Shown here one piece after another: positions 5,674-28,321 of a DNA stretch of 64,000 nucleotides. Numbering within the stretch: position 1 is the first letter of the stretch; the number at the start of each line of letters is the position of its first letter. The position numbers and the translations under genes were made by a program. Source of the stretch: Calditrichota bacterium (lineage in GTDB: Bacteria; Calditrichota; Calditrichia; Calditrichales; Calditrichaceae). The notes beneath the pieces were generated by a model that did no database searches, was not told where the DNA came from, and worked only from the letters and a program-made list of their open reading frames with translations. The stretch is taken from NCBI GenBank assembly GCA_024278755.1, contig JAJRSO010000002.1, positions 62,001 through 126,000 on the forward strand, in the 5' to 3' direction.

Positions 5674-5988
5674 ATGACAAAAATTCTTTTGCTGTTTTTG
5701 TTTCTGTTTTTAGCCGCTGCCTGTGTTTCCACCAAAGCGGTTTCCGAAGAGAACCAACCTCTGGTGGATGTTCTGGTGCAGGAATGGATGCATAAGCATG
5801 ATGCAAAAAGCGCTGAAAAACTTCCGGTTATTATTCAATCAAAAGAAGCTCTGGAAGGATACGGCTTTTTAAAAATGCTTAAAAAAAACTTTTACGGTGG
5901 GCAGGCTTCTTATATGGATTTGCAACGGTTACAAAAAGATGTCAAAGTCCTGCGTATCTACACAGGCAGAGAGAAACTTCTTAAATAA
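5674..5988 (+). CDS. Small lipoprotein, 104 aa, coupled to the exported subtilase
   Basis: The first 16 residues form a signal peptide ending in the lipobox LAAAC, so Cys17 would be lipidated and the 88-residue mature protein anchored to a membrane. The mature part is charged and helical (Lys, Glu, Leu rich) with no recognised domain. Its stop codon is only 14 bases from the true subtilase ATG at 6003, so the two are surely one transcription unit. A role as a membrane-anchored partner, chaperone or inhibitor of the protease is possible but is inference from position only. AATGGAGTTCAT supplies a GGAG ribosome site before the ATG. Confidence 0.75.
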   Translation: MTKILLLFLFLFLAAACVSTKAVSEENQPLVDVLVQEWMHKHDAKSAEKLPVIIQSKEALEGYGFLKMLKKNFYGGQASYMDLQRLQKDVKVLRIYTGREKLLK

Positions 5989-6002
5989 TGTTGGAGAAGA
6001 AT

Positions 6003-8129
6003 ATGCGTTTTGTCTTTTTATTTTTAGTTTTGGCCGGTCTTCTTCAGGCACAAATAATAGGGCCTTTTCTAAAGCATGAGGCGTCAAAGTCTTTGTTAAA
6101 ATCTTCGGCTGAGGATTATCCTTTAACCATTCGCGGTGAAGGTCGTTTTGTTGATGCGTTAACAAAATCGGGTTTTGCGGTACAGGCGTCCAATGGAAAC
6201 ATTGCCACGGTCATTGTACCGCGGGATCGATTAGAGGAATTATCTTCCATAAAAGAAATTCAAACGATCGAATTGGGGCCCAAAAGAAAACTCTATAATT
6301 CCAATGCGGTAATTTTCCAGAATGTGGGTGTCGCTTACAGCAAGGGATACACCGGTTCCGGAGTTATAATAGGTGTTGTGGATACAGGCATTGATTTTTA
6401 TAACCCCATGTTTCGGGATGCTTCCGGCAATACCCGGATTTTATATCTGTGGGATCAAACCGCTTCCGGAAGCGGGCCCTCCGGAACCGATTTTTCTAAC
6501 GGAGTCGAATATTCCCAGGCACAAATTAACCAGGATCTTGCATCCGGTTCGCCTCACTCTGTTGTTCCACAGAGAGATACCGAAGGACACGGCACGCATG
6601 TGGCCGGTTCCGCAGCCGGACGTCATCTAACGGCTTCGCCGGCCGATACTCTGCATGGCGGGGCGATGGACGCCAATCTGATTATTGTAAAAACAACGCT
6701 TTTGGGCGCCGATATTTCCAATGGTGTAAAATATATTTTTGACAAGGCAGCCGCTCTTAGCAAACCGTGCGTAATCAATTTGAGCCTTGGCAGCCAGTAC
6801 GGTCCCCACGACGGTACCGACGTGAACAGCGAGTTGATTGATGGTTATACCGGAGCGGGAAAAATTGTTGTGCGCGCAGCCGGAAACAATGGCGGCGATA
6901 AGGTACACTATTATGCAAAAAATGAAGTGTCGTCGGATGCTATTCAATTCGGCTATTCTTCGCTTGTAAATATGTGGCTGGAAGCCTATGATAATATTCA
7001 GAGTGTTTCATTGAGCTGGAACGGCGGTTCTATTTCTAACGTTACAAAAAACGCATATAAAGAAAATAATGGTATTAAGCTCTATCTCTATCCACCGGAT
7101 CCGGAAAATCAAAAGATAGCCGCTTATGTGGTGATGGAGAATGAAAATTTAAACTCGGAAACCTTTACCCTGACCCTAAATGGGTTATCCGATGATAGCG
7201 GTAACAATACTATCGAACGTCATGTATGGGCGGAGACGGATGTGATGAATGCTCCCTATGGCGCTTTTACGCAGGGTTCGGAATATGATTATAGCCACTA
7301 TCCGTATACACTGGCCAATGGCGCTTGTGCGCCAAAAGTAATTACGGTGGGCGCTTTTATAAGCCGTGAATCATGGACAGCTGTAAATAATGAACCGGGC
7401 CAAGCCTGGCATATTCCCGGCGCTGGCGCTGCCGGTGGAATCGCTGATTTCAGTTCCATCGGGCCCACGGCAAACGGATTACAAAAACCGGATATCATTG
7501 CCGGAGGTACAATGATTCTTTCGGCGCGCAGTTCGGACGCCACGTATTCGGACTATTATATTCCACAGGCGCCGTATACAGATGATTTTGCCTATATGCA
7601 AGGCACTTCGATGGCGTCTCCGGTGGCGGCGGGGGCCATCGCATTGCTGCTTGAAAAAAATCCGACCTGGACGCCGGCCGATTTATTAAGCTATTTAAAG
7701 ACCCATGCTCAGGGTACATACAATCCCCAGGGGTTGGCCAGTGCGCAAGTGGAGGTAAAAACGAATCCCAATAGTTGGGACCAGGTATTTGGCTGGGGAG
7801 CGGTGGATGTGACGGATGCGTTTGCTCCGCAGGCCATTGACGACCCGGATGTTTCTGTCCCGGCGGGCTATGCTCTGGAACAAAATTATCCCAATCCGTT
7901 TAATCCAAGTACGGCTATCAGCTATCAACTATCGGCTATCAGCGATGTACAATTAACGGTTTATAATGCTTTAGGGCAGAAAATCCGGACGCTGGTAAAC
8001 AGCAAACAGGAGGCCGGACCGCATACGGTTACTTTTAATGCCGCAGGATTGGCAAGCGGTGTTTACTATTATAAATTATCAGCCGGGAATAATACAATTC
8101 AAACCCGCAAGATGATTTTACTGCGCTAA
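6003..8129 (+). CDS. Secreted S8 subtilisin-like protease with T9SS C-terminal sorting domain
   Basis: I place the start at ATG 6003 (708 aa), because GGAGAAG precedes it, rather than at the in-frame ATG 5988 that lacks a ribosome site. A signal peptide of 16 residues ends QA, leaving Gln as mature residue 1. The S8 triad is visible as Asp127 (VVDTGID), His196 (GHGTHVAG) and Ser536 (GTSMASP). An insertion of roughly 200 residues with beta-sandwich character lies between the His and Ser blocks, as in lantibiotic- or C5a-like subtilases. The last ~85 residues carry YPNPFNPST and end in a GVYYYKL/RKMILLR pattern, the sorting domain used for T9SS export. The protein should be surface-attached or released and digest extracellular protein. 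Confidence 0.93.
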   Translation: MRFVFLFLVLAGLLQAQIIGPFLKHEASKSLLKSSAEDYPLTIRGEGRFVDALTKSGFAVQASNGNIATVIVPRDRLEELSSIKEIQTIELGPKRKLYNSNAVIFQNVGVAYSKGYTGSGVIIGVVDTGIDFYNPMFRDASGNTRILYLWDQTASGSGPSGTDFSNGVEYSQAQINQDLASGSPHSVVPQRDTEGHGTHVAGSAAGRHLTASPADTLHGGAMDANLIIVKTTLLGADISNGVKYIFDKAAALSKPCVINLSLGSQYGPHDGTDVNSELIDGYTGAGKIVVRAAGNNGGDKVHYYAKNEVSSDAIQFGYSSLVNMWLEAYDNIQSVSLSWNGGSISNVTKNAYKENNGIKLYLYPPDPENQKIAAYVVMENENLNSETFTLTLNGLSDDSGNNTIERHVWAETDVMNAPYGAFTQGSEYDYSHYPYTLANGACAPKVITVGAFISRESWTAVNNEPGQAWHIPGAGAAGGIADFSSIGPTANGLQKPDIIAGGTMILSARSSDATYSDYYIPQAPYTDDFAYMQGTSMASPVAAGAIALLLEKNPTWTPADLLSYLKTHAQGTYNPQGLASAQVEVKTNPNSWDQVFGWGAVDVTDAFAPQAIDDPDVSVPAGYALEQNYPNPFNPSTAISYQLSAISDVQLTVYNALGQKIRTLVNSKQEAGPHTVTFNAAGLASGVYYYKLSAGNNTIQTRKMILLR

Positions 8130-10894: not shown

Positions 10895-13048
10895 CTAATT
10901 ATGATCAATACCCATTTCGTCAAGCAGATATCCGGCGCCGGCATATTTTTGCAGAAGCCATAAAATATAGCGGATATCCACACCGATGGAACGGCTGTAT
11001 GATTCGTCCCAGGCAAAATCATTGATGGTAGCGCCAAAGGCGCGATCAAAATTTAAGCCTACCAGTTCTCCTTTGGCATTTAGCACCGGACTGCCGGAAT
11101 TACCGCCGGTGGTATCGCAATCGTATAAAATTCCAACCGGCATGGTGTGCAGTGTTGCACTTTGCAAAAATCCAAACGCTTTGGCCTTAATGAGTTGTCG
11201 CAATTTATCCGGGGCGTTAAAAGGCGCCTGCCCCGTGTGCTTTTCCAGAATGCCGGCCACGGTGGTAATGGGAAAATTGTAAACGGCATCGGCCGGCGCA
11301 TATCCGCGAATATGCCCGTAGGTGAGCCGGAAGGTGCTATTGGCGTCGGGAATGAAGGTGTTCTTTTCATATAAACGTTTCACTTCGGCCCACTGTGCCG
11401 AAAGTTTGGAGAGTTCTCCGGACTGCCGCTCGTTTTTTTCTTTCAGCGCTTTGATATCCGGCTGTAACGCCTGTATCCATTGCAGGAAGGGATCGTTGGT
11501 TTTTTGTATCTGTTCGAAAGACTGCTGAAAGGCTTTGCTAAGGAAATCTTTTTGGGTGATTTTTGCGTCGTCGTATGCCTGTTTAATTGCCTTCTGCCAG
11601 TCCCGTTCGGGGTTGTTCAACGAAAAAAGCCGATCCATGCTTTTGATACGCTGACCTTTTGGCAACTGCGCCGCCTTGCGCAGTAATTCGGTTAAAATAA
11701 GTTCGTCTGCCTGTAGATCAAAATTTTGTAAACGTATAAAAAGACGCTTTTTGGTGCGCTCGAAATTGCGGTTCATGAAAGCCGATTCCCGTTCCAGATC
11801 TTCTTTTTCCCGTTCTTCGGCGGCTTTATACACCGTATTGGCAAAAGAGAGGGCCGAGACGCTGCGGGTTAAATAAGAGAGAATATAATCCCGTTCGGCT
11901 GAATTTGTTTTTTCGTCATAAATATTTTTTATAGCATTTAAGACCGCCCCATAACGCCGTTGCAATGCTTCGTCCTTTTGTAAAAAGGCCTGAATCTGCG
12001 CTTCCTGTCCGCGTTTTTTTCGAACCATTTGCAAACGGCCGAGACCTCGTAATTTACCACGGTAATTTTTCTCGGTGTTTGCCAGGCTTTTAATGGTGGC
12101 ACTGAAACGGAGAGCGGTCGCACGATCCTCTTTACCCAAATCTTCCAGTAAATGAATCTGCCACTGGTACCAGTCGGCCACAAAGGGCATGTGTACGTGT
12201 TCTTCGTAAGCAGTAAAATAGGAGGTGCGGTGGCGGTAGGTACGTCCCGGATAGCCCAACAGAAAAACAAAATCGTTTTCATCTACTCCGCGGGGGGTAA
12301 CGTTTAAATATTTTTTTGGTTGATAGGGAACATTGTCCGCGGCGTATTCGGCGGGACTGCCATCCGGCGCACTGTAAGCGCGCAGAATGGAAAAATCACC
12401 CGTATGGCGCGGCCACTCCCAGTTGTCTGTTTCGCCGCCAAAGTTGCCAATAGAGATGGGCGGCACATAAACCAGGCGTACGTCTTTGAGGTAGGTGTAA
12501 AGAAACAAAACATAGGTTTGGCCTTTGAACATCTCGGCCACCTCGGCCCGCATGCCGGGGTTTTCTTTTTCGGCCCGGGCGGTAATTTCTTTGCGGCGCC
12601 GCTTGATTGTTTTATTGCGTTCGGCAAAATCGCTAATCGCATCAAGGTCTTTTAATACTTCCGCAGAGACGTCTTTAAACGACTGGGTGATGCGCACCGT
12701 GTAGCCTTTAGCTTCGATCTCCTGTTCCCGGCCGGCGGCCATAAAACCGTTTTTCAGATAATCGTGCTCGGCATTGCTGGCTGTTTGCACCGCCCGGAAA
12801 GCGCAATGATGATTGGTTAAAATTAACCCCTGTGGTGAAATAAAAGAACCGGTGCATCCGCCTAATTTAACGATGGCGTCCGACAGAGAAGGCGCTTCCT
12901 GGTTAAAAATATCGGCAGCCGAAATTTTAAAGCCGGCTTTTTGTAGATCGATAGTATGCAGTTCGCTGAGCGGATACATGCCTTCTTCGGCAAAAAGTGC
13001 TGAGAGGGAAAGGAATAGAGTCGTTATTAAAAATATAAATTTAGTCAT
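10895..13048 (-). CDS. S46-family dipeptidyl-peptidase, DPP11-like (Asp/Glu preference)
   Basis: A 717-residue periplasmic exopeptidase of the DPP7/DPP11 family that removes dipeptides from the N terminus of oligopeptides. The signal peptide ends ALFA at residue 20. The chymotrypsin-type elements are GCTGSFIS followed by TNHHCAF (catalytic His near residue 80), and TGGNSGSPV with nucleophile Ser651. The residue 18 positions beyond the nucleophile is Arg669 (NFDRAFG). In Porphyromonas DPP11 the pair is Ser655/Arg673 and the Arg selects Asp or Glu at P1, while DPP7 has Gly there. This enzyme is therefore predicted to prefer acidic P1 residues. AAGGA precedes the ATG; lgt follows after 14 bases. 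Confidence 0.93.
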   Translation of the reverse strand: MTKFIFLITTLFLSLSALFAEEGMYPLSELHTIDLQKAGFKISAADIFNQEAPSLSDAIVKLGGCTGSFISPQGLILTNHHCAFRAVQTASNAEHDYLKNGFMAAGREQEIEAKGYTVRITQSFKDVSAEVLKDLDAISDFAERNKTIKRRRKEITARAEKENPGMRAEVAEMFKGQTYVLFLYTYLKDVRLVYVPPISIGNFGGETDNWEWPRHTGDFSILRAYSAPDGSPAEYAADNVPYQPKKYLNVTPRGVDENDFVFLLGYPGRTYRHRTSYFTAYEEHVHMPFVADWYQWQIHLLEDLGKEDRATALRFSATIKSLANTEKNYRGKLRGLGRLQMVRKKRGQEAQIQAFLQKDEALQRRYGAVLNAIKNIYDEKTNSAERDYILSYLTRSVSALSFANTVYKAAEEREKEDLERESAFMNRNFERTKKRLFIRLQNFDLQADELILTELLRKAAQLPKGQRIKSMDRLFSLNNPERDWQKAIKQAYDDAKITQKDFLSKAFQQSFEQIQKTNDPFLQWIQALQPDIKALKEKNERQSGELSKLSAQWAEVKRLYEKNTFIPDANSTFRLTYGHIRGYAPADAVYNFPITTVAGILEKHTGQAPFNAPDKLRQLIKAKAFGFLQSATLHTMPVGILYDCDTTGGNSGSPVLNAKGELVGLNFDRAFGATINDFAWDESYSRSIGVDIRYILWLLQKYAGAGYLLDEMGIDHN

Positions 13049-16252: not shown

Positions 16253-19200
16253 TTGAATGCTTTCTTAAAAAAAGTAGCAGGGGCAGTGCGTCTTTTCGTC
16301 TTCATCGTCCTTTTTGCTGTTCTGTATCCTAAGCCGGTTGCAGCCCAGATCGGTCTCCGTGTACCGGAGCCGCCGCGTGTTGTGCATCTGTTTCAGCCTC
16401 ATATTTACGGTCTGGAATTTTATCAGCAGGATTCCACTTTTTTTCAAAAACCGCCTTCCATATATAAACGTCAGATTCGGCTGGATTCCACCGCGTCTTT
16501 TATTTCGGTAAGCGAAGGGATCGACCATACCCAGTTTCAGTTACCGGCCGTTGTGGATATCGATACATATATTAAACTGCGTACCGCCTTTGACACCCGG
16601 GAATTGTGGAAAAAAAATACCCTCACCGCACTTAGCGGGAAAGTACAAAAGTCCTCCGGCGCCATTGAACTGGACATTCCGTTTCGTATCAAAAGTAAAG
16701 CCTTTACCCGCATTTTCGGTTCCGACCGAATCGGTTTGCGTGTAACCGGAAATATTTCATTTGATTTATCCGGACGAACGGAAAAGCGATCCGGCTCGGC
16801 AATTTCTGCCATCGAAAACCAGAACACCTTCAGTCCGCGTTTCAGACAGACGCAGCAGTTTACCGTCGAAGGGAAAATCGGCGATAAGGTTACGGTGTCG
16901 GTGGAGCAGAATTCCGAAGCGACCGTGGATATCGATAATACGCTAAAATTGCGGTACGACGGCGGGGAAGATGAGATTGTTCAAAAAATTGAAGCGGGAA
17001 ATATTTCCCTTTCACTGCCTTCTACAAAATATGTAATTTTCGGCGGTTCCAATCAGGGTTTGTTTGGATTAAAAACCCAGATGCAGTTGGGCGATTTATA
17101 TTTTACCGCCATTGCATCACTGGAAAAAGGGCAGCAGCAGGAGCTCTCTGTAAGCGGCGGCTCCAAGAAGTCAAGCTCTAAAATTAAGGATTATAATTTT
17201 ATCCGTAACCGGTATTTTTTTGCGGACACGTGGTACCACGATAATTTTGAGGTGGGATTTAAAGACAACCCCACGCAGTTTGTGGTTCCGGCCGACCGAA
17301 AGATTTTACAACTGGAAGTCTGGCAGTCTACAGGAATTACCGATAGGAAGAAGCGCAAGGGTATTGCCGTTTTAGACCCTGCGCAATACTGGAATTCCGC
17401 TACCGGATACAAGGGAGTGGATATTGATGCGCTTAACACGACGCTTGCCGCGGATACATTAGAATATTATTATGGATATTTTAAGCGTCTGGATGAGGGG
17501 AAAGATTACACTTATGATGAGTACCGGGGGTTTTTTACGCTCAGCCAAACAGCCGACGAGCAGTCGGCCCTTGCTGTTTCGTTTGTAACCGAAGGTCAGG
17601 CCGCCAACCCCTCCATCCCTACGACCGGTACGATGAGCGCTTTACTTAGCGATAGCCTGCAGCCGGTTGTGCTGCGGTTAATTAAACCCAAAGCAATGCA
17701 GCCGGATAATAAAAACACATGGCCGCTTATGATGCGCAATGTGTATTCGCTCGGCGGTACAAAAATAGAACGGGAAGGGTTTGAACTGCGTCTGGAAAAT
17801 AATGTAAACGGTAATCACGAGATCTATCCGGAGGGCGGTAATAAATCCTATTTAAATTTGCTTGGGCTGGATGTGCTGGATGTAAATGGCGCTGTGGTGG
17901 AAGGTGGCGATGAGCAGATAGACAATAACCGGTATATTGTTAATCTAAATGACGGTACGCTGATGTTTCCCGCTTTACGGCCTTTCAATCCGCAAAAAGG
18001 AAGCCGTTTTGAAGGCCGCCTGCCGGAAGAGAACCTGGTGGATATGTATGATGTAACGCCCAATCAGACGACCCTTGCCGAACGTAGTCAGTTTGAAATG
18101 CTGGTAACTTCCAAGAGTACCCGCTCTACGTTTGACCTTGGGTTTTATGTGCTTGAAAACAGCGAAGTAGTTACTGCCGGAGGCCAAACCCTGGTACGTG
18201 ATAAAGATTATACGATTGATTATTTTAGCGGACAGCTCACTCTGATTTCTGCCGAAGCCAAACGTTCCAGCGCGCAGTTGCATATCAAATACGAACGGGC
18301 CAATCTTTTTCAGCTCGATAAAAAAACCATTTTCGGCGGTCGCCTGGAATACCGTTTCCTGGACAATTCCTTTGTGGGGCTGACCGCGCTGTATCTGAAC
18401 AAAACCACGCTGGACAGGCGTGTTCGCGTAGGGCAGGAACCGTTCAGCAACTTTGTATGGGATGTCAATGCGGCCTTTAAGTTTAAGCCGCGTTTTATAA
18501 CCAAAGCCATGAATGCCCTCCCTTTTTTAGAAACGAACGCAGAATCGCATATCAATATCGAAGGTGAATTTGCCCAGGTGCTTCCCAATCCCAATTCGCT
18601 GAACAATAGTAAAACCGGGGATAATGACGGTGTCGCCTATGTGGATGATTTCGAATCCAGTAAACGTACCACTACTTTAGGTATCCGATACCGAACCTGG
18701 AGCATGGCTTCGGCGCCAAAATATATGGCGACGATCGGGGAAGGTGAAGATTTGGACGAAGTGGAAGTGGATTCGAAACGGGGCACCATTGTCTGGTTTA
18801 ATCCCTACAATCAAACGTTGATTAAAGATATTTGGCCCAACCGGGATGTAAACGCTCAAACCGGACAGACGACGGATGTGTTGGGTATCGATATAATGCG
18901 GCCCGAAGATTCAGACCCCGACAGCGCCTGGGCTGGCATTATGCGTTCCACCATTAATTTTTCCGATCAGCAGAAAACCAAATACATCGAAATGTGGATT
19001 CAGGGTTACGACGGAACCGTAAATATCGATATTGGCCGTATTTCGGAGGACTGGTATCTAAAAGGCAAGAACCTGAGTCTCGAAGACAGCAGGGGCAACC
19101 TGAATACGGAAGATAAAAATTCAAACGGTCTTTTGGAACTGGAAGAAGATATCGGAATTGACGGCGTTCCCGACGGGCAGCCCGGTGACGATCCCTTTGA

Positions 19201-22200
19201 TAACTGGAGTGAGCCTAAAGCAGGCGCCCTGAATATGTACGATGGCTATTTATACGACGGAATAAACGGTACCGAAGGAAACCATAATTCACGGGACGCC
19301 CGTTATCCGGATACGGAAGACTTAGACGGTGACGGCGATATATCAACAATAAACGAATATTTTGAATATTCGTTTTCACTGGATTCTCTGGATACGGAAA
19401 CCAATGCCCGGGAGTGGATTAAAGGGTCCACCGAGAAAAAATGGCGTCTGTTTAGAATACCGCTTAATAAATATACGAAAGTTGTGGGAAATCCGGATCC
19501 TAATTTTCAGCAAATTTTCTTTGTGCGTTTATGGTTTAGCGATTTACCGGTGGAGCGCAGACGTATTAAAATTGCCACGTTCGATTTTGTGGGTAACGAG
19601 TGGGAGGAACGCGGCATTGCCGTGCATAAAGATTCCGCCTTTGTTAAAAACGATTCGCTGTTTACCCTGGCCACCTACAATACCGAAGAAAATGCCGACC
19701 CGCCGCAATCGTATGAATCGCCTCCGGGCGTTACCGGCGTACGCGACAGGATTACAAAAGCGCTGTCCAAAGAGCAGTCGCTGGTAATGTCGCTGACCGA
19801 TTTAATGCCCGGTGAATATGCCGAAGCTAAAAAGACCATGTTCAGCGCCATGGATCTGCTTAATTATAAAAAGCTGCGCATGTTTGTTCATGGCGATAAA
19901 CTGTTGCCTTCCGAGCCGCCGGTGGAAATTTCACCCGGGGACACGGTGGGCGATTTTTCTCAGTTGCGCTTTTATCTGCGTTTTGGCTCCGACGCTAACA
20001 ATTATTACGAGTTTGGCAGGGATATTTATGCCGGCTGGTACAAAGGAAATGAAATTGACATTGATTTGGATGAATTGGCGGCCATTAAATCCATCGATTC
20101 ACTGAATATCGGTACGGCTGATACGCTCATCTTCCGGAAAAAACTTCCCGGAAATACACAAGCGTATTATTTGGCCCACGGTCGTCCAAACCTGAAAAAT
20201 ATTCGCTATTTTATTATTGGCGTAAAACACCGGGGCGACGAAATGGGACGCATCGGCACGCCTTTTACGGGTGAGCTTTGGCTGGATGAATTACGCCTGT
20301 CCAATGTGCGCCGTAATAAAGCTTCTGCCTTGCGTTTAAGTACCAGTGTGGCTTTGGCCGACGTAATTACCTTTAATGCGCAGTGGGAAAGCAAAGACGC
20401 CGATTTTCATAATATCAGCACGCAGTTCGGCAAGGGCGATACGCAGGAACGGCAGAACTACCGCGGTAAAATTGTACTGGATAAATTTTTGCCGGATTCG
20501 TGGGATTTATCCATTCCCATAGACGGCAGCGCCAGTTTTAGCCGCAGCATTCCCAAGTATAAACCGAAGACCGACGAACTCACCGGATATGGAAATGATA
20601 CGTTTGATAAAAAACTACGTTCTTTGTTTGGAACCCGTTCTCTGGATCCCGCCCTGGAAGAACTGACATCTGCCAACGAAGTGCTGGGTTGGGGTACTAC
20701 CATAAAAACCCGTTCTAAATCCAAACGGTGGTATTTGCGTTATACAATTGATGAAATGCTGTTTGATTTTGACTATTCCCGAAAGAACAGCAGCAACTGG
20801 GAAACCTTATTTAATCGTTCGGAACAGTATAAGGAATCATTTCGTTACAGTATCCCGTTTAGTAAAAGCAATTATATTCAGCCGTTTACGATTTTTAAAA
20901 ATTTTCCGGTACTCAAAAAACTTAGTGATCAAAAGCTCTATTATTCGCCCCAAAGCATAAAAATGTCCTTAAATGTTTTTGATTCCGAGTCCGAAAAACT
21001 GCTTCGTCGCGCGGGCAGCGAAAAGACGCGTATCGTCAATACGGGCACTACACGTTCTATCAGCACGGGATATATGTTTTTCCCCAGTATGAAATTTTCG
21101 TATGGCCGTACGCATAAAACGGATGCGGATTTTGTGGGACTGAAACACGAAGATATTTTAAAAGAGATTTTAACCAAAGCAAATTTTGGTAAAGAAACCG
21201 ATATCTCCCAATCCTTTAAGGGCGATTATAATCCTAAAATTATAGACTGGTTTAAGCCCAGTTATTCGTATAGCAACAATTTCTCCTACAATCTTACTAA
21301 CGGATACAAATACCGCCAAACGGCCAATAAAACAACACAGCGGGTGGGGCTTACGATTAGTCCGGGAAAATTGTTAAAAAGTATATACAGCCCTAAAGGA
21401 CAAAAGAAAAAATCCAGAGGAAGAGGTTCGCGCCGCAGGGGGAGTAAAAATACCAAGCAGCAGAAAACAGAGGCCAAAAAGAGTACGTCTTTTTCGATTA
21501 CAACCCCTTTGATGTGGATATATGATGTCTTTGCGGGCTGGAGCAGCGTTAAAACAACCATTACAAAAAATGAAAGTAACCGCCACCAGTATCTGAATTC
21601 CATGCCCAAATGGAAATACCAGTTTGGCTTTACCAAAGATCCGGGCGTTGGGCAGGATATCGAAATGGCCGAACGGGAGAATATCCTGCTGGTCGGGCCG
21701 TCGAACCAGGAGACCTACTCGGTGCGCACTTCCACCAGCTTAAGTTTAACCTCGTTTATAAAAACAACGCTGTCGCACGACTATTCTACTCAGGAGTCAA
21801 ACGCCAATTACGGACAAACCCGAAGCGGCACCAGAAACAGCTCCTATTTTTCACTAAGCGACGATCCATTAACCGAAATTAAAGGAATTTCGGGCATAAA
21901 CGCCTTTATTCCCGATTGGACCGTATCGGTTAATAAAATAGAAAAACTCTTTTTCTTCCCTTCGTTTGCAAAATCCATAACTTTGGAACACAGCCATTCA
22001 AGCAAGTATTCCGAGCGTTTAACTTTAAATCCCATCGACAAAAAATATGAGGCGGCTTCGAGTACATACAGCAATAACTGGCAACCGCTCGTCGGCGTCA
22101 ATATCCGTACAAAATGGGGGGTGAATGCTAAAATTCGCATGACCAATTCCACCAGCTATTCGGCGGCGCGCGCCGCAGGATCCACAAAAAGCGAAACCGA

Positions 22201-22540
22201 ACAGGTTACATTCAGCATGTCTTATAAAAAATCCACCGGTTTTAAAATTCCCATTCCGATTTGGCCTTTTAAAGGAAAAACGTTTAAAAATGAAATTAAT
22301 TTTAACCTGACTTTCGATACGTCCAATAACCGAACATACCAGAGACAGTTTGGGCAAAAGAAGTTTCAGGAACGGCAAAATAATAAAACCTGGAAACTGC
22401 GTCCTTCCGCAACCTACCGATTCAGCACCCGTGTGCAGGGAAGTATGTTTTATGAACGGGGATTTACGGAAAACAAAGTTTCGGGTAAGTATACTTATAA
22501 TGAATTTGGCATCACCGTGAATATTGCAATACATGATTAA
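16253..22540 (+). CDS. sprA: SprA/Sov-type type IX secretion translocon
   Basis: A 2095-residue giant outer-membrane beta-barrel that forms the T9SS pore through which sorting-domain proteins leave the cell. A basic N terminus and signal peptide end VAA at residue 31, exposing Gln. The long, Tyr- and Gly-rich body of alternating strands and the block DGVAYVDDFESSKRTT near residue 800 are recognisable SprA features; Flavobacterium SprA is around 2400 residues. The reading frame opens with TTG at 16253 and has no in-frame ATG nearby; GTG at 16286 (just before RLFVFIVLFAV) is an alternative that also keeps the signal peptide. No classic ribosome site fits either. PorV-like partners lie at 26453 and 27413. 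Confidence 0.92.
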   Translation: MNAFLKKVAGAVRLFVFIVLFAVLYPKPVAAQIGLRVPEPPRVVHLFQPHIYGLEFYQQDSTFFQKPPSIYKRQIRLDSTASFISVSEGIDHTQFQLPAVVDIDTYIKLRTAFDTRELWKKNTLTALSGKVQKSSGAIELDIPFRIKSKAFTRIFGSDRIGLRVTGNISFDLSGRTEKRSGSAISAIENQNTFSPRFRQTQQFTVEGKIGDKVTVSVEQNSEATVDIDNTLKLRYDGGEDEIVQKIEAGNISLSLPSTKYVIFGGSNQGLFGLKTQMQLGDLYFTAIASLEKGQQQELSVSGGSKKSSSKIKDYNFIRNRYFFADTWYHDNFEVGFKDNPTQFVVPADRKILQLEVWQSTGITDRKKRKGIAVLDPAQYWNSATGYKGVDIDALNTTLAADTLEYYYGYFKRLDEGKDYTYDEYRGFFTLSQTADEQSALAVSFVTEGQAANPSIPTTGTMSALLSDSLQPVVLRLIKPKAMQPDNKNTWPLMMRNVYSLGGTKIEREGFELRLENNVNGNHEIYPEGGNKSYLNLLGLDVLDVNGAVVEGGDEQIDNNRYIVNLNDGTLMFPALRPFNPQKGSRFEGRLPEENLVDMYDVTPNQTTLAERSQFEMLVTSKSTRSTFDLGFYVLENSEVVTAGGQTLVRDKDYTIDYFSGQLTLISAEAKRSSAQLHIKYERANLFQLDKKTIFGGRLEYRFLDNSFVGLTALYLNKTTLDRRVRVGQEPFSNFVWDVNAAFKFKPRFITKAMNALPFLETNAESHINIEGEFAQVLPNPNSLNNSKTGDNDGVAYVDDFESSKRTTTLGIRYRTWSMASAPKYMATIGEGEDLDEVEVDSKRGTIVWFNPYNQTLIKDIWPNRDVNAQTGQTTDVLGIDIMRPEDSDPDSAWAGIMRSTINFSDQQKTKYIEMWIQGYDGTVNIDIGRISEDWYLKGKNLSLEDSRGNLNTEDKNSNGLLELEEDIGIDGVPDGQPGDDPFDNWSEPKAGALNMYDGYLYDGINGTEGNHNSRDARYPDTEDLDGDGDISTINEYFEYSFSLDSLDTETNAREWIKGSTEKKWRLFRIPLNKYTKVVGNPDPNFQQIFFVRLWFSDLPVERRRIKIATFDFVGNEWEERGIAVHKDSAFVKNDSLFTLATYNTEENADPPQSYESPPGVTGVRDRITKALSKEQSLVMSLTDLMPGEYAEAKKTMFSAMDLLNYKKLRMFVHGDKLLPSEPPVEISPGDTVGDFSQLRFYLRFGSDANNYYEFGRDIYAGWYKGNEIDIDLDELAAIKSIDSLNIGTADTLIFRKKLPGNTQAYYLAHGRPNLKNIRYFIIGVKHRGDEMGRIGTPFTGELWLDELRLSNVRRNKASALRLSTSVALADVITFNAQWESKDADFHNISTQFGKGDTQERQNYRGKIVLDKFLPDSWDLSIPIDGSASFSRSIPKYKPKTDELTGYGNDTFDKKLRSLFGTRSLDPALEELTSANEVLGWGTTIKTRSKSKRWYLRYTIDEMLFDFDYSRKNSSNWETLFNRSEQYKESFRYSIPFSKSNYIQPFTIFKNFPVLKKLSDQKLYYSPQSIKMSLNVFDSESEKLLRRAGSEKTRIVNTGTTRSISTGYMFFPSMKFSYGRTHKTDADFVGLKHEDILKEILTKANFGKETDISQSFKGDYNPKIIDWFKPSYSYSNNFSYNLTNGYKYRQTANKTTQRVGLTISPGKLLKSIYSPKGQKKKSRGRGSRRRGSKNTKQQKTEAKKSTSFSITTPLMWIYDVFAGWSSVKTTITKNESNRHQYLNSMPKWKYQFGFTKDPGVGQDIEMAERENILLVGPSNQETYSVRTSTSLSLTSFIKTTLSHDYSTQESNANYGQTRSGTRNSSYFSLSDDPLTEIKGISGINAFIPDWTVSVNKIEKLFFFPSFAKSITLEHSHSSKYSERLTLNPIDKKYEAASSTYSNNWQPLVGVNIRTKWGVNAKIRMTNSTSYSAARAAGSTKSETEQVTFSMSYKKSTGFKIPIPIWPFKGKTFKNEINFNLTFDTSNNRTYQRQFGQKKFQERQNNKTWKLRPSATYRFSTRVQGSMFYERGFTENKVSGKYTYNEFGITVNIAIHD

Positions 22541-22632
22541 GCGGAATAAATACCGAACAATGTGTTTTGACGATTTTTTTGTGTTACGGCGCGTAAGTAT
22601 TTATTTTTAAGCTTGTTTTAAAGGAGCATAAA

Positions 22633-23532
22633 GTGCGTATACGAGTACTGTTTATTTTATTAGTTCTGTTTGCCGCCCAAAAACCGGCGGCGGCTCAGTT
22701 TGACGCGGATCGCGCTTTTTCCTATTTAAAAAAGCAGGTGGATTTCGGAACCCGCGAGCCGGGGAGCAAAGGACATGGGCTCTGTCTGGAATTTTTAGAT
22801 GCGGAACTGCGTCAACTGGCAGACAGTGTACGGCTGCAAAGTTTTGAATTTCAGGATATGCGCAATAATAAGCATTTTACTCTGACGAATGTCATCGCTT
22901 CTTTTAATCCCACCGCAAAGAAACGTATCTTTTTTGCAGCGCATTGGGATACCCGACCGCGGGCAGACTATGACATAAAAGAGAACCGGGAAAAACCCAT
23001 CCCCGGAGCCAACGACGGAGCCAGCGGTGTGGCGGTTTTATTGGAAATAGCCCGGCAGTTAAAACTAACGCCGGTAACGATTGGCGTGGACTTAATCTTT
23101 TTTGACGGGGAGGATTACGGTGAAGAGGGACATCTCGAAGATTATTTTTTAGGCTCCCGCTATTTTGCCAAACATGCTTCGGATTACCATCCGGAATATG
23201 GTGTTTTGCTGGATATGATTGGCGACGCCAATTTAAACATTCCCAAAGAGGGCTGGTCTAACCAGTATTTACCGCAAATCGTGGAGAAAGTCTGGCGTAC
23301 GGCGCGCGACCTCGGCTATACGGAATTTGAAGATCGGGTTGGGCTGCAGATAAGCGATGATCATCTGATTTTGATTGAACACGGAATCCCCTGTATTGAT
23401 GTAATTGATTTTGAATATCCGGACCGCTCGCACCGCTATTGGCATACCTTGCAGGATACGCCGGACAAATGCAGCCCCCAAAGCCTCGAAACGGTGGGCC
23501 GGGTAATGATGGAATTGATTTATTCTGAATAA
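22633..23532 (+). CDS. Glutaminyl-peptide cyclotransferase (type II QC, M28 fold)
   Basis: A 299-residue periplasmic zinc enzyme that cyclises N-terminal Gln to pyroglutamate. The signal peptide ends AAA at residue 21, exposing Gln itself. The order of motifs matches animal-type and Bacteroidota QCs: AAHWDTRPRAD, GANDGASGVAVLLE with zinc ligand Asp128, FFDGEDYG with catalytic Glu160 and ligand Asp161, the GSRYFA segment, ISDDHLIL, and YWHTLQD with ligand His271. GTG start with AAGGAG seven bases upstream. An M28 aminopeptidase is the alternative, but the DDH and WHT blocks favour cyclase. It follows sprA by 92 bases, and many exported proteins here begin with Gln after cleavage. Confidence 0.85.
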   Translation: MRIRVLFILLVLFAAQKPAAAQFDADRAFSYLKKQVDFGTREPGSKGHGLCLEFLDAELRQLADSVRLQSFEFQDMRNNKHFTLTNVIASFNPTAKKRIFFAAHWDTRPRADYDIKENREKPIPGANDGASGVAVLLEIARQLKLTPVTIGVDLIFFDGEDYGEEGHLEDYFLGSRYFAKHASDYHPEYGVLLDMIGDANLNIPKEGWSNQYLPQIVEKVWRTARDLGYTEFEDRVGLQISDDHLILIEHGIPCIDVIDFEYPDRSHRYWHTLQDTPDKCSPQSLETVGRVMMELIYSE

Positions 23533-23557
23533 TTAAACCGTATAAAAGCAGGTGGCT

Positions 23558-24409
23558 ATGTCCAAACAATGGATTGAAATTAAAATTACCCTACCGTCTG
23601 AATACCTGGAATCCATCTCTTCTTATCTTTTTGCGCTTGGTAGCAGCGGACTGGTGGAAGAAGACAATGCCTGTACGGTTTATTTTCCCGAAGAGAATTG
23701 GATTCCCGATAGTTATGTTTTACTGCGTTCATTCTGTAAAGCCCTTTATCCCGATGTACGTTTTTTCCAGTCACGGGTTCAGGCCGAAAACTGGAACGAG
23801 AACTGGAAGAAAAACTTTCATCCGTTTCGCATTACGAAAAACTGCATCATTGTTCCGGACTGGGAAAAGGAATACGATGCGGGTGATGCGCATAAAATAA
23901 TTATCAGCCCTAAAATGGCCTTTGGAACCGGGCATCATGAAACGACAAAGCTAATTTTAAGGCTTCTGCCCGAGTACTTAAATCCTCAGGCAAGCGTACT
24001 GGATGCGGGAACGGGCAGCGCCATTCTTTCCATTTATGCCGCTCAGTTGGGCGCGGAACGGATAACCGCTTTTGATCCCGACCCGGATGCGGTTGAAAAT
24101 GCGCTGGAAAATATTAAACTGAACGGTTTTCAGACGCGTATTGCCGCCCAGGTTGCCACGCTGCATGAGATTGAAAAAAACGAGTTTGATTTGATTCTGG
24201 CAAATATTAACCGTAACGTGTTGCTTACTCTGGCAGAACCGTTTACACATTTTATCCTGCCCGAGGGGACATTAATTTTGTCCGGCTTACTGGAACATGA
24301 TTTTGACCGGGTAAACGAAACATACGCTGCGGCCGGCTGGTATTTGCGGCGTAAAGAACAATTGGGAGAATGGCTGGCGCTGGTATGGGTTCGAAACGCG
24401 CAGGAATAA
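23558..24409 (+). CDS. prmA: Ribosomal protein L11 methyltransferase PrmA
   Basis: Class I SAM-dependent methyltransferase that trimethylates ribosomal protein L11. The N-terminal ~110 residues form the L11-recognition domain, with WNENWKKNF, which is typical of PrmA. The SAM-binding core follows: FGTGHHETT, motif I DAGTGSAILSIYA, and the motif IV-like LILANINRNVL. I choose ATG 23558 over GTG 23552 because AGCAGGTGG then lies just upstream. The protein is about 283 residues, the usual size. Its placement among secretion-related genes looks incidental. Confidence 0.93.
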   Translation: MSKQWIEIKITLPSEYLESISSYLFALGSSGLVEEDNACTVYFPEENWIPDSYVLLRSFCKALYPDVRFFQSRVQAENWNENWKKNFHPFRITKNCIIVPDWEKEYDAGDAHKIIISPKMAFGTGHHETTKLILRLLPEYLNPQASVLDAGTGSAILSIYAAQLGAERITAFDPDPDAVENALENIKLNGFQTRIAAQVATLHEIEKNEFDLILANINRNVLLTLAEPFTHFILPEGTLILSGLLEHDFDRVNETYAAAGWYLRRKEQLGEWLALVWVRNAQE

Positions 24410-24461: not shown

Positions 24462-24893
24462 ATGATAAAAAAAACAGGAATAATTACAACGCTGGCCCTG
24501 CTGGCTCTGCTGGTTTCATGTTCGGAACCGGCAAACAAGGGAGCCGGCGTCATTAAAAATATCTATATGCCGGATAGTTTGCAGCGTCCGGATTCCATTG
24601 CCGTGGCCCTGATCCGCGCAGAAGTGGAAGACCCGGATGGGCTGGACGACGTCGAATCCGTTTATTTTTATTCGCTTAAACCGAACGGGGAATATGCCAA
24701 TGGCGGAAACGGGTTTGATATGATGGATGATGGAACTTTTGGGGATGAAATTGCCGGTGACGGCATCTATTCGCTGGGTATCCAGATTAATGATCAGGCG
24801 CAGTTGGGAACCTATATTTTTACATTCAATATGCGCGACAAGGCGGGAAACTCCGCAGAAGAAGTGGCAGATTCAATTAAGGTGTATGAATAG
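24462..24893 (+). CDS. Lipoprotein with an Ig-like/choice-of-anchor domain, 143 aa
   Basis: Signal peptide ending in lipobox LVSC with Cys20 as the lipidation site. The mature protein is one beta-sandwich-like domain: EVEDPDGLDDVESVYF and DDGTFGDEIAGDGIYS are motifs of bacterial cadherin/Ig-like domains with calcium-type Asp loops, and DKAGNSAEEVADSIKV closes it. AGGAAAAA lies before the ATG. Its stop TAG is immediately followed by the ATG of the next gene with no spacer, so the two are translationally linked and the products may work together at the surface. No enzymatic motif is seen. Confidence 0.75.
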   Translation: MIKKTGIITTLALLALLVSCSEPANKGAGVIKNIYMPDSLQRPDSIAVALIRAEVEDPDGLDDVESVYFYSLKPNGEYANGGNGFDMMDDGTFGDEIAGDGIYSLGIQINDQAQLGTYIFTFNMRDKAGNSAEEVADSIKVYE

Positions 24894-26372
24894 ATGAAAA
24901 AAATACTTTTGATATTGGTTATCTTGGGCATATGTTCGGCCTTAATGGCCCAGACGCTTTATAAAAATTCTTTTGCTTTGACAGATGAAACAGAAAATTT
25001 TAGCGGCCAGTTGTATGGCAACGGTATTGTGGATTTGCTGGTGCAGGATTCGATCGTGTGGGCCGCGACCGGGTACGGTCTGAGCAAAGCCATGTATCGC
25101 GGCTGGGACAATCCGCTGGAGTGGCGCTCTTTTTCCGATAATGAATACCTGGGAAAAGGCGGCGTTTCGGCCATGGCTATTATGAATGATGACAGCAGTA
25201 CGCTGTGGATTGCCACGGCCTTTGATACAACGGCACAGGGTACAGATTTGCCTGCCGGCGGCGGCTTAAGCTATACAAAAGATGGCGGCGAAACCTGGAT
25301 ACATATTCCGCAGCCGGTAGATACAAAAGACGTGACGGCCTATGCCCCCACGACCACTGTAATTCAAAATCTGACGTACGACATTGCCTTTGTCGGTGAA
25401 ACAATTTGGATCGCCAGCTTTGGCGGCGGGCTGCGTCGTTCGGATGATTGGGGCGCCACCTGGCAGGTTGTGACAACAGACGGATTACCTTTTAACAGTG
25501 GACAGTATCTGAATCACCGCGCTTTTTCGCTGCTGACAGTCGAGGACACTCTTTGGGTAGGCACGGCGGAAGGCATCAGTAAGACGGTGGACAACGGGGC
25601 CACCTGGGAACACTTTACGGCAGATGTGAATGATCCCGCAACGATTTCCGGAAATTTTATTGTGGCTCTGGCCTGGCAGGAGGAAACAAACTCTCTGTGG
25701 GCGGCAACGCTTCCGGCGGAAAGTCAGGGGGAGGTTCGGGCAATTAGCAGAACGTCGGACGGCGGTGCTACCTGGGAACGAATGCTGACGGACGAACAGA
25801 TTTTTGCGCATAATATTGCCTTTGCCGAAAATCGGGTCTATGTGCCCTCGGACCAGGGGTTGTTCTATTCCAATAATAATGGTTTAGACTGGGAAGAACC
25901 ACTTACCGCCTTGCAGGACACCGATTCCGGAAATGAAATTTTTCAGGAAGAATACTATTCGGCGGCTGTACAGTCTGTTTCGGGTACGGAGATTTTATGG
26001 CTTGGTAATTCGGATGGACTCGCTTATACCGTCGTTGACGATAATCTGAACAATGCGCCGTGGAATATTGCTCGTTCTTCTGTCTCTGTAAAAAGCCGGA
26101 CAAAACCAAAAGTGTACGCCTATCACTCACCCTTTTCTCCATCACGGCACTACTATGTGCGCTTCGAATTTGACGAAGACAAAGAATTTGAGGGATCCAT
26201 AAAAATTTATGATTTTGCCATGGATTTTGTGGCGGATATTCCCACAGGCGAACTAAATCCAAAATGGAATGGTAAAAATTCAGCCGGGAAAACAGTGGCC
26301 AGCGGAGTCTATTTTTTTAAGGCCGAAATCGGCGGTTCGGCAACCTGGGGTAAGGTTGTGGTAATCAATTAA
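24894..26372 (+). CDS. Exported beta-propeller (BNR/Reg_prop-like) protein with T9SS-type C-terminal domain
   Basis: A 492-residue secreted protein. The signal peptide ends LMA at residue 19, exposing Gln. The body shows repeated blades of the form WVGTAEGISKTVDNGATW and TSDGGATWERM, the BNR/sialidase-type propeller also seen in YCF48-like and sortilin-like proteins. The final ~85 residues contain FSPSRHYYVRFEF, KIYDFAMDFV and SGVYFFKAEI, a FlgD-like T9SS sorting domain. It abuts the lipoprotein gene and is followed by two PorV-family barrels, PorV being the T9SS shuttle that collects sorting-domain cargo. The ligand of the propeller is unknown. Confidence 0.82.
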   Translation: MKKILLILVILGICSALMAQTLYKNSFALTDETENFSGQLYGNGIVDLLVQDSIVWAATGYGLSKAMYRGWDNPLEWRSFSDNEYLGKGGVSAMAIMNDDSSTLWIATAFDTTAQGTDLPAGGGLSYTKDGGETWIHIPQPVDTKDVTAYAPTTTVIQNLTYDIAFVGETIWIASFGGGLRRSDDWGATWQVVTTDGLPFNSGQYLNHRAFSLLTVEDTLWVGTAEGISKTVDNGATWEHFTADVNDPATISGNFIVALAWQEETNSLWAATLPAESQGEVRAISRTSDGGATWERMLTDEQIFAHNIAFAENRVYVPSDQGLFYSNNNGLDWEEPLTALQDTDSGNEIFQEEYYSAAVQSVSGTEILWLGNSDGLAYTVVDDNLNNAPWNIARSSVSVKSRTKPKVYAYHSPFSPSRHYYVRFEFDEDKEFEGSIKIYDFAMDFVADIPTGELNPKWNGKNSAGKTVASGVYFFKAEIGGSATWGKVVVIN

Positions 26373-26452: not shown

Positions 26453-27403
26453 ATGAAAAAAATAATTTTGGCGGCGCTGCTTCTGCTGCCCTTGTTTTTG
26501 TATGCAAATGGGAATGGCGGCTATGCCGGTTCGGCGTTTCGAATTGGTCTTGGCGCGCGCGCCACCGCGCTGGGAAATACCGGAACCGCCGATGTGCCAA
26601 ACGGTTATTCCTTTTACTATAATCCGGCCCTGACGGGTTTTGTGAAAAATAAAATATTTTCACTCTCTTCCAACAGTATGTCGCTTGACCGTAATCTGAA
26701 TTTTATCGGTTTTACCATGAAAGTGCCTCCTGCGGCGGGGTTTTCGATCGGATGGATTCGCATCAGTATCGGCGATCTTTACCGGATCAACGGTATCGGC
26801 GAGATTACCGGCGATATCGATCAGTCGCTGAATGCTGTCTATTTTAATTTTGCCCGTCCCTTCGGAGAAAAACTTTCGGCCGGCCTTTCCATCAAATATT
26901 TATGGGAATCCATTGATTTTGGCAGCGATGTCTATTTGTCGAACGGCTGGGGCTGGGAGTTCGGTCTGCTTTATCGTATTTCTGATAATCTAAGCGCTGC
27001 GCTGGTGGCACGGGACCTGGCAACCAAACTCAGCGCGGCAACCGATAAACTCTTCGAGTTTGGCGGAACAACGACCGATGCTCTGCCCAAAACATATCTT
27101 GCCGGATTGCGCTGGAAAACTTTTTATCCCTGGCTGCGCGTTTTGTATGATTTCGAAATGAGCGATAAACAAGCCCGCAAACACCATTTCGGCGCCGAAG
27201 CGCTCTATCAAAATGCCGTTGCTCTTCGCGGTGGGTATGACGCCGATCGCTTTACCTTTGGCGCGGGCATCAATTTTCGAAACTTAAAAGCCATGAAAAA
27301 AAGTATGCTTTCGTATTTGGGACAGCTTGATTACGCTTTTCTCCCGTCCCGTCACGGCGAAGGTAGTACGCATATTTTTTCATGGCAGATTTTTTTAGAT
27401 TAA
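26453..27403 (+). CDS. PorV/PorQ-family outer-membrane beta-barrel protein (1)
   Basis: A 316-residue outer-membrane barrel of the FadL-like PorV/PorQ (UPF0164) group. A signal peptide ends LYA around residue 18. The family start is plain: FRIGLGARATALGNTGTA then YSFYYNPAL, the amphipathic pattern at the head of PorV-like barrels. In T9SS, PorV (LptO) accepts cargo emerging from SprA and PorQ belongs to the attachment complex. Whether this is PorV, PorQ or another paralogue cannot be decided by eye. AAAGGTTACGT precedes the ATG. A second, related gene follows after nine bases, so they form an operon with the propeller gene. Confidence 0.8.
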   Translation: MKKIILAALLLLPLFLYANGNGGYAGSAFRIGLGARATALGNTGTADVPNGYSFYYNPALTGFVKNKIFSLSSNSMSLDRNLNFIGFTMKVPPAAGFSIGWIRISIGDLYRINGIGEITGDIDQSLNAVYFNFARPFGEKLSAGLSIKYLWESIDFGSDVYLSNGWGWEFGLLYRISDNLSAALVARDLATKLSAATDKLFEFGGTTTDALPKTYLAGLRWKTFYPWLRVLYDFEMSDKQARKHHFGAEALYQNAVALRGGYDADRFTFGAGINFRNLKAMKKSMLSYLGQLDYAFLPSRHGEGSTHIFSWQIFLD

Positions 27404-27412
27404 GAGGAAGTA

Positions 27413-28321
27413 ATGATTTTAAATAGCATAAAAATTCTTTGGCTGTTTCTTTTAGGTAGCTTCGGCGTTGCCGCAGCATCGGGCAGCAACGGACTGGCTT
27501 TTTTAAAAGTGGATGTGGACGGCCGCTCCGCGGCTATGGGCGGCGCCTATACGGCGCTTGCTTCCGGCGCTTCCGCTGCTTACTGGAATCCTGCCGGACT
27601 GGCGGATTCGGATAAAAACAATATTATATTGACCCATCTTGTTTGGCTGAGCGACATTACTCAAGAATATGCGGCTGTAAAGTTTAATGCGGGTAGACAC
27701 CATTTTTCGCTGGCCGTAAATGTTTTTACTATTCCGGGTATCGAAATTCGCGGCGAAGAACCCGCTGCCGAACCGGACGGGACAGTGGAGGCGGTAAATT
27801 TTTATACGGCGTTTGGATATGCGCGTTCTTTTGGGGGGGGATGGCAAGCGGGCATTAATGTAAAATACCTGTATGAAAAGCTCTATTTAACTTCGGCCGG
27901 GGGCTTTGCCGTTGACTTGGGTGTTAAATATCATTCTGTTTATAAGGGGCTGGACTGGGGTCTAACCATCCAGAATATTGGGAAAATGACACAGTTAAAA
28001 GAGCAGTCAACCCCGCTTCCGTTTCTTTTACGCAGCGGTTTTGCGTACCGTCTGCCGTATCGGTTATTCCTGCAAAATCCTTTGTTGACCAGCGATCTGG
28101 AATACATCAGGGACGGTAGAACTTCTTTTCGTCTGGGAGGGGAAATCCCTCTGGTAGGCGGGCTGGTCTTTCGGCTGGGTACCCGTTTTGGCGAGGCTCG
28201 CTTTCAATGGACGGCAGGTGTCGGTCTTAATTATCGGGCCTTTTATTTTGATTATGCCTTCGCGCCGGATCCGTTTGATTTGGGAACGAGTCATCGTTTG
28301 ACGCTGGGATTGTATTTCTGA
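27413..28321 (+). CDS. PorV/PorQ-family outer-membrane beta-barrel protein (2)
   Basis: A 302-residue paralogue of the preceding gene. It carries the same family opening, FLKVDVDGRSAAMGGAYTAL followed by AAYWNPAGLA, and ends RLTLGLYF with the C-terminal Phe expected of BAM-assembled barrels. The signal peptide ends near VAAA at about residue 22. AGAGGAAGTA gives a strong ribosome site. Having two PorV-like genes side by side, next to a sorting-domain protein and within 12 kb of sprA, fits a T9SS cargo-handling function. Which paralogue binds SprA is open. Confidence 0.82.
   Translation: MILNSIKILWLFLLGSFGVAAASGSNGLAFLKVDVDGRSAAMGGAYTALASGASAAYWNPAGLADSDKNNIILTHLVWLSDITQEYAAVKFNAGRHHFSLAVNVFTIPGIEIRGEEPAAEPDGTVEAVNFYTAFGYARSFGGGWQAGINVKYLYEKLYLTSAGGFAVDLGVKYHSVYKGLDWGLTIQNIGKMTQLKEQSTPLPFLLRSGFAYRLPYRLFLQNPLLTSDLEYIRDGRTSFRLGGEIPLVGGLVFRLGTRFGEARFQWTAGVGLNYRAFYFDYAFAPDPFDLGTSHRLTLGLYF

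What the first reader, a model, noticed from the sequence alone, without database searches (positions are those of the whole stretch)
16253..23532. Glutaminyl cyclase beside sprA and signal peptides that expose Gln: a Q-rule outside Bacteroidota
Predicted signal peptidase I cleavage leaves Gln at position 1 in six of ten exported proteins here: subtilase, SprA, the cyclase, propeller protein, porin and hybrid kinase. Exceptions are S46, two PorV-like proteins and the TonB receptor. In Bacteroidota this bias feeds a periplasmic QC that makes pyroglutamate. Seeing the QC gene directly after sprA suggests that T9SS and N-terminal cyclisation evolved or are regulated together in this lineage.
Basis: partly seen in the sequence, partly recalled or inferred. 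Interest (0 to 1): 0.66.

Follow-up and report, generated by a model that had tools for sequence, protein, structure and literature searches.

The report
Q-rule and glutaminyl cyclase in Calditrichota
This Calditrichota bacterium sends about half of its exported proteins out with a glutamine as the new first residue and carries a glutaminyl cyclase gene next to the type IX secretion gene sprA, so a protein-capping habit described as exclusive to Bacteroidota is older and wider than that.

Summary
The genome is a Calditrichota. The gene after sprA encodes a type II ("animal-type") glutaminyl cyclase: nearest solved structures are Bacteroidota QCs, and it has the single-zinc QC signature (D-G, E-D, W-H), while M28 aminopeptidase paralogs read D-N and Y-H. 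In a 19% sample of the genome, Gln is at +1 in 38% of signal peptidase I substrates with a predictor blind to that position and 54% when it may learn it, against 3.7% background and 8-10% in E. coli. T9SS cargo and other exported proteins do not differ, so this is a general Q-rule, not a T9SS signal. sprA-QC adjacency is conserved in 20 of 28 Calditrichota with both genes and in Marinimicrobia, Zixibacteria, Eisenbacteria and Gemmatimonadota loci. Unexpected: at least three separate changes put QC-less genomes, which also lack the plant-type QC, among QC-bearing ones, yet those sampled keep Gln+1 at about 60%. Either a third cyclase exists or Gln+1 does not depend on this enzyme. Cyclisation itself is untested.

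The parts
16253..22540 (+). sprA, T9SS outer membrane translocon; own mature N-terminus predicted Gln (QIGLRVPE)
   Evidence: TIGR04189 865 bits and PF14349; +1 call
22633..23532 (+). type II glutaminyl cyclase; SPI signal peptide (..KPAAA|QFDADRAF), no lipobox; catalytic E160, zinc ligands D128, D161, H271 (window protein numbering)
   Evidence: phmmer 6qro E 5e-64; active-site columns; AlphaFold model pLDDT 93.5, Foldseek top hits QCs with TM 0.84-0.89
23552..24409 (+). prmA (ribosomal protein L11 methyltransferase), third gene of the conserved cluster
   Evidence: PF06325 218 bits; order conserved
24462..24893 (+). short version of a conserved ~390-aa cluster protein of unknown family
   Evidence: blastp to the same slot in other genera; no Pfam match
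24894..26372 (+). secreted beta-propeller protein with FlgD-like C-terminal domain; mature N-terminus Gln
   Evidence: Pfam (FlgD_ig is below its curated cut-off)
26453..27403 (+). PorV/PorQ-family outer membrane protein 1 (non-Gln +1, non-Gln in most orthologs)
   Evidence: NF033709 88.9 bits, just under its cut-off of 90; orthologs
27413..28321 (+). PorV/PorQ-family outer membrane protein 2 (non-Gln +1, non-Gln in most orthologs)
   Evidence: NF033709 151 bits; orthologs
5988..8129 (+). subtilase with T9SS type A sorting domain; mature N-terminus Gln
   Evidence: PF00082, PF18962
47241..48224 (+). porin; mature N-terminus Gln
   Evidence: PF13609
57680..61990 (+). hybrid two-component kinase with periplasmic propeller; mature N-terminus Gln
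   Evidence: PF07494, PF02518, PF00072
10895..13048 (-). S46 dipeptidyl-peptidase (DPP7/DPP11 family), a possible N-terminal threat; non-Gln +1
   Evidence: PF10459 690 bits

Best explanation
Calditrichota follow a Q-rule like that of Bacteroidota. Signal peptidase I exposes Gln on about half of its substrates whatever their destination, and the sprA-linked type II glutaminyl cyclase, itself exported, turns that Gln into pyroglutamate in the periplasm, blocking aminopeptidases and dipeptidyl-peptidases such as the S46 enzyme encoded nearby. sprA-QC is an old FCB gene pair, in Calditrichota part of a cluster sprA-QC-prmA-x-propeller-PorV-PorV; its linkage looks like inherited gene order, not cargo-specific coupling. 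Shown: the sequence bias, the enzyme family and active site, the gene order. Inferred: the cyclisation, its timing and its protective role.
For: Gln+1 38% blind and 54% learned in the window's genome, 65% and 62% (learned) in two other Calditrichota; the same learned model gives 79% in Bacteroidota loci (published mean 71%), and E. coli gives 2/26 blind, 2/21 learned. SprA orthologs start with Gln in most Calditrichota while PorV orthologs mostly do not, with the blind model. QC: zinc ligands, catalytic Glu/Asp, Gly after the first zinc Asp, Trp before the zinc His and the Arg/Pro/Asp loop are conserved in 31-32 of 32 Calditrichota; inspected M28 paralogs are aminopeptidase-type; Foldseek top hits are QCs, including PgQC, TfQC and BtQC. 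Calditrichota QCs fall outside a supported clade of Ignavibacteriota, Balneolota and Bacteroidota, so recent transfer from Bacteroidota is unlikely. Adjacency in 20/28 and in other phyla.
Against: Six f1 genomes lack both known QC types, yet the four of them that were sampled keep Gln+1 at 61% pooled, learned model. The window QC lacks the lipid anchor of PgQC and two substrate-pocket residues (PgTrp193 is Tyr, PgPhe294 not kept). No proteomics.
Confidence: 0.78

Rival explanations
1. The Gln+1 bias does not depend on this QC: another, unrecognised cyclase (or a preference of signal peptidase, or spontaneous cyclisation) maintains it, and the sprA-linked QC is redundant in family f1.
For: QC is absent from the sprA-prmA slot in G007, G011, G013 and G014 (sprA followed directly by prmA) and is missing from the sprA locus of G006; these and G012 have no QC match, no plant-type QC hit above noise and, where inspected, aminopeptidase-type M28s, yet Gln+1 is 44/72 pooled in the four sampled, learned model. 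They are not one clade on the SprA tree (AU p = 0.0003, at least 3 changes).
Against: Genomes are drafts; losses could be recent on long tips; Gln+1 may decay slowly; the SprA tree may not be the species tree. G013 (3/11) and G007 (6/15) alone are small samples and lower.
Confidence: 0.25
2. QC and T9SS are functionally coupled: cyclisation serves T9SS cargo, and the operon co-regulates both.
For: Adjacency conserved across several phyla; sprA and any QC co-occur outside Calditrichota (14/20 vs 24/101, p = 1e-4).
Against: CTD-bearing and other proteins have equal Gln+1; prmA shares the cluster; QC unlinked in family f5; QC missing while sprA stays; mutagenesis in P. gingivalis argues against a sorting role (PMC5837995).
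Confidence: 0.1
3. The gene encodes an M28 aminopeptidase, not a cyclase.
For: Pfam names it M28; 3tc8 and 4fuu were deposited as aminopeptidases.
Against: Gly after the zinc Asp, Asp as third ligand and Trp before the zinc His, unlike the inspected M28 paralogs; those depositions were proposed for re-annotation as QC (PMC7948796).
Confidence: 0.03

Closest known systems
Bacteroidetes Q-rule (Bochtler 2018 PMC5837995; Szczesniak 2023 PMC10653852)
   Same: Gln at +1 in about half or more of SPI substrates, independent of destination; type II QC with Asp as third zinc ligand in the genome
   Different: Another phylum; somewhat weaker bias (54-65% against 79% here for Bacteroidota loci, learned model); QC beside sprA and in the window not a lipoprotein; some lineages lack any known QC. 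The 2018 paper already listed Ignavibacterium album (77%) and some Chlorobi above 50%, so 'exclusive' was not airtight; Calditrichota is not named in its text.
PgQC, TfQC, BtQC (PDB 6qql, 6qro, 7d1d/7d1e)
   Same: About 40% identity, same fold (TM 0.84-0.89), same catalytic set
   Different: PgTrp193 is Tyr, PgPhe294 not conserved, no lipobox in the window enzyme

Membership tests
Type II (animal-type) glutaminyl cyclase, bacteroidal subtype | Single zinc site Asp/Asp/His with catalytic Glu and Asp | tested here: met
   D128, E160, D161, D194, H271 of the window protein; conserved in Calditrichota
Type II (animal-type) glutaminyl cyclase, bacteroidal subtype | Gly (not Asn/Asp) after first zinc Asp and Trp (not Tyr) before zinc His | tested here: met
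   D-G 31/32, W-H 31/32 in Calditrichota; M28 paralogs D-N and mostly Y-H
Type II (animal-type) glutaminyl cyclase, bacteroidal subtype | Pocket residues PgTrp193 and PgPhe294 | tested here: not met
   Tyr/Phe at the first, no Phe at the second; these line the pocket and are not the catalytic set, so I keep the family and drop only the claim of an identical pocket
Type II (animal-type) glutaminyl cyclase, bacteroidal subtype | Cyclises N-terminal Gln | not testable with these tools
   needs an enzyme assay
Q-rule | Gln at +1 in about half or more of SPI substrates | tested here: met
   54% learned, 38% blind, 57% at confident blind sites
Q-rule | Independent of final compartment | tested here: met
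   T9SS cargo against the rest p = 0.64
Q-rule | Exposed Gln is pyroglutamate in vivo | not testable with these tools
   needs N-terminal proteomics
Q-rule | QC is an inner-membrane lipoprotein (usual, not universal, in Bacteroidota) | tested here: not met
   window QC has an SPI-type signal peptide; QCs of G016, G019 and Zixibacteria have lipobox-like signals. In Bacteroidota about 15% of animal-type QCs are predicted SPI substrates (PMC5837995), so this is not disqualifying

The most novel reading that the evidence does not exclude
Calditrichaceae contain a third, unrecognised periplasmic glutaminyl cyclase (or a QC-free Q-rule): the sprA-linked QC was lost several times while Gln+1 stayed near 60%.
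Probability: 0.25. Interest if true: 0.75.

Novelty: new member of a known kind. Interest (0 to 1): 0.6.

Why it matters
It removes the claim that the Q-rule is exclusive to Bacteroidota, pushes N-terminal cyclisation back toward the common ancestor of several FCB phyla, and gives a conserved sprA-QC gene pair as a marker. The repeated absence of QC with the Gln bias kept offers a natural test of why Q-rule bacteria need the enzyme.

Tried and rejected
A first rule-based signal peptide caller mixed in membrane proteins and was replaced by an EM-trained model. A motif count ([AVST]xA followed by Q near the N-terminus) was dropped: E. coli also scored high in its small sample, probably because its signals carry Q at -2. 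Idea that QC loss follows loss of S46 peptidases: rejected, G006, G013 and G014 keep S46. Idea that an M28 paralog replaced QC: all inspected are aminopeptidase-type. Plant-type QC as replacement: true for G022, G032, G035, G037, not for the six f1 genomes.

Full report
What is there. The window lies on contig 18 of a 3.94 Mb genome; its QC is 92% identical to one from a Calditrichaceae bin, so the organism is a Calditrichota. SprA (16253-22540) is well above the TIGR04189 cut-off. QC follows after 92 nt and prmA 19 nt after QC. The genome has 106 matches to the T9SS sorting domain, nearly all over the cut-off.

Is the enzyme a cyclase? By sequence the nearest solved proteins are bacteroidal QCs. 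Following the discriminators in PMC7948796, all catalytic and zinc residues, the Gly after the first zinc Asp and the Trp before the zinc His are kept in Calditrichota. Other M28 proteins of the phylum that I inspected have Asn after the Asp and, nearly always, Tyr before the His. An AlphaFold model (pLDDT 93.5) matches QC structures first, TM 0.84-0.89. Two pocket residues differ. I take QC identity as about 95% sure; activity is untested.

Is the Gln bias real? No SignalP was at hand, so I wrote an EM-trained signal peptide model. It was run once blind to +1 and once allowed to learn +1. In 732 kb of the genome: 37/97 blind, 59/109 learned. With the learned model, G001 (4.98 Mb in one contig, probably Caldithrix abyssi by size) 20/31; G019 26/42; Bacteroidota loci 30/38; Ignavibacteria plus Balneolaceae 13/21. 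E. coli: 2/26 blind, 2/21 learned. The blind figure has p = 1e-27 against background. Learned figures favour Gln by construction and are upper estimates; blind ones are lower estimates because misplaced sites dilute them. At blind sites with posterior above 0.9 the figure is 17/30. SprA orthologs begin with Gln in most Calditrichota and in the Marinimicrobia one; PorV orthologs are mostly exceptions.

Is it tied to T9SS? CTD-bearing proteins 13/22, others 46/87, p = 0.64. So the bias is general, as in P. gingivalis.

How old is the gene pair? Of 40 Calditrichota genomes 30 have a clear QC hit and 37 SprA; in 20 of the 28 with both, QC lies just downstream of sprA (counted from coordinates). 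The order sprA-QC-prmA-x-propeller-PorV-PorV recurs. Named loci with sprA-QC: Marinimicrobia L006, an FCB bacterium L009, Zixibacteria L010, Eisenbacteria L040 and L078, Gemmatimonadetes L082; QC-prmA without sprA nearby in Ignavibacteria and Balneolaceae. In unnamed families outside the phylum, 7 of 9 genomes with both have them about 2-2.6 kb apart, measured from the SprA_N domain. Calditrichota QCs do not nest in Bacteroidota.

What does not fit. G006, G007, G011, G012, G013 and G014 have no QC hit and no convincing plant-type QC. Where the contig allows a look, the QC slot is empty (in G006 prmA was not called either, and G012's contig does not reach the slot). They are not one clade on SprA (AU p = 0.0003; at least 3 changes). 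The four sampled (G006, G014, G013, G007) still show Gln+1 of 43% blind, 61% learned; with the model fitted per genome G014 is 22/31 and G006 12/21, while the other two have few proteins. I cannot tell whether a third cyclase, slow decay or something else explains this.

Literature. PMC5837995 and PMC10653852 present the Q-rule as Bacteroidetes-specific, though the former lists Ignavibacterium album at 77%. In the open library I found no report of a Q-rule in Calditrichota or of sprA-QC linkage; subscription papers were not searchable. The C. abyssi genome paper does not mention secretion systems or a cyclase in the terms I looked for.

Limits. A 19% genome sample, a home-made predictor, draft genomes, single genes for trees, and no protein chemistry.

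Noticed in passing
window 10895-13048 (-): S46 dipeptidyl-peptidase gene on the far side of lptF/lptG from sprA; in P. gingivalis enzymes of this family are suggested to attack N-termini not protected by pyroglutamate. S46 is kept in QC-less G006, G013, G014.
   Followed up: partly
G006, G007, G011, G012, G013, G014: Independent absences of the sprA-linked QC inside Calditrichota family f1 without loss of the Gln+1 bias in the four sampled genomes.
   Followed up: partly
Calditrichota family f5 (G029-G034) and G022, G032, G035, G037-G039: Plant-type (beta-propeller) QC PF05096 present, in several genomes together with the animal-type QC, so both types coexist in one phylum.
   Followed up: partly
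window 24462-24893 (+): 143-aa ORF is a short form of a ~390-aa protein of no known Pfam family that keeps its place between prmA and the propeller gene in other genera.
   Followed up: no
G000:C18, C15, C7 and others: 106 T9SS type A sorting domain matches in one Calditrichota genome, although T9SS is still described as Bacteroidota-specific in reviews.
   Followed up: partly
G000:C50:198949-199176: A T9SS sorting-domain ORF with one in-frame TAG.
   Followed up: no
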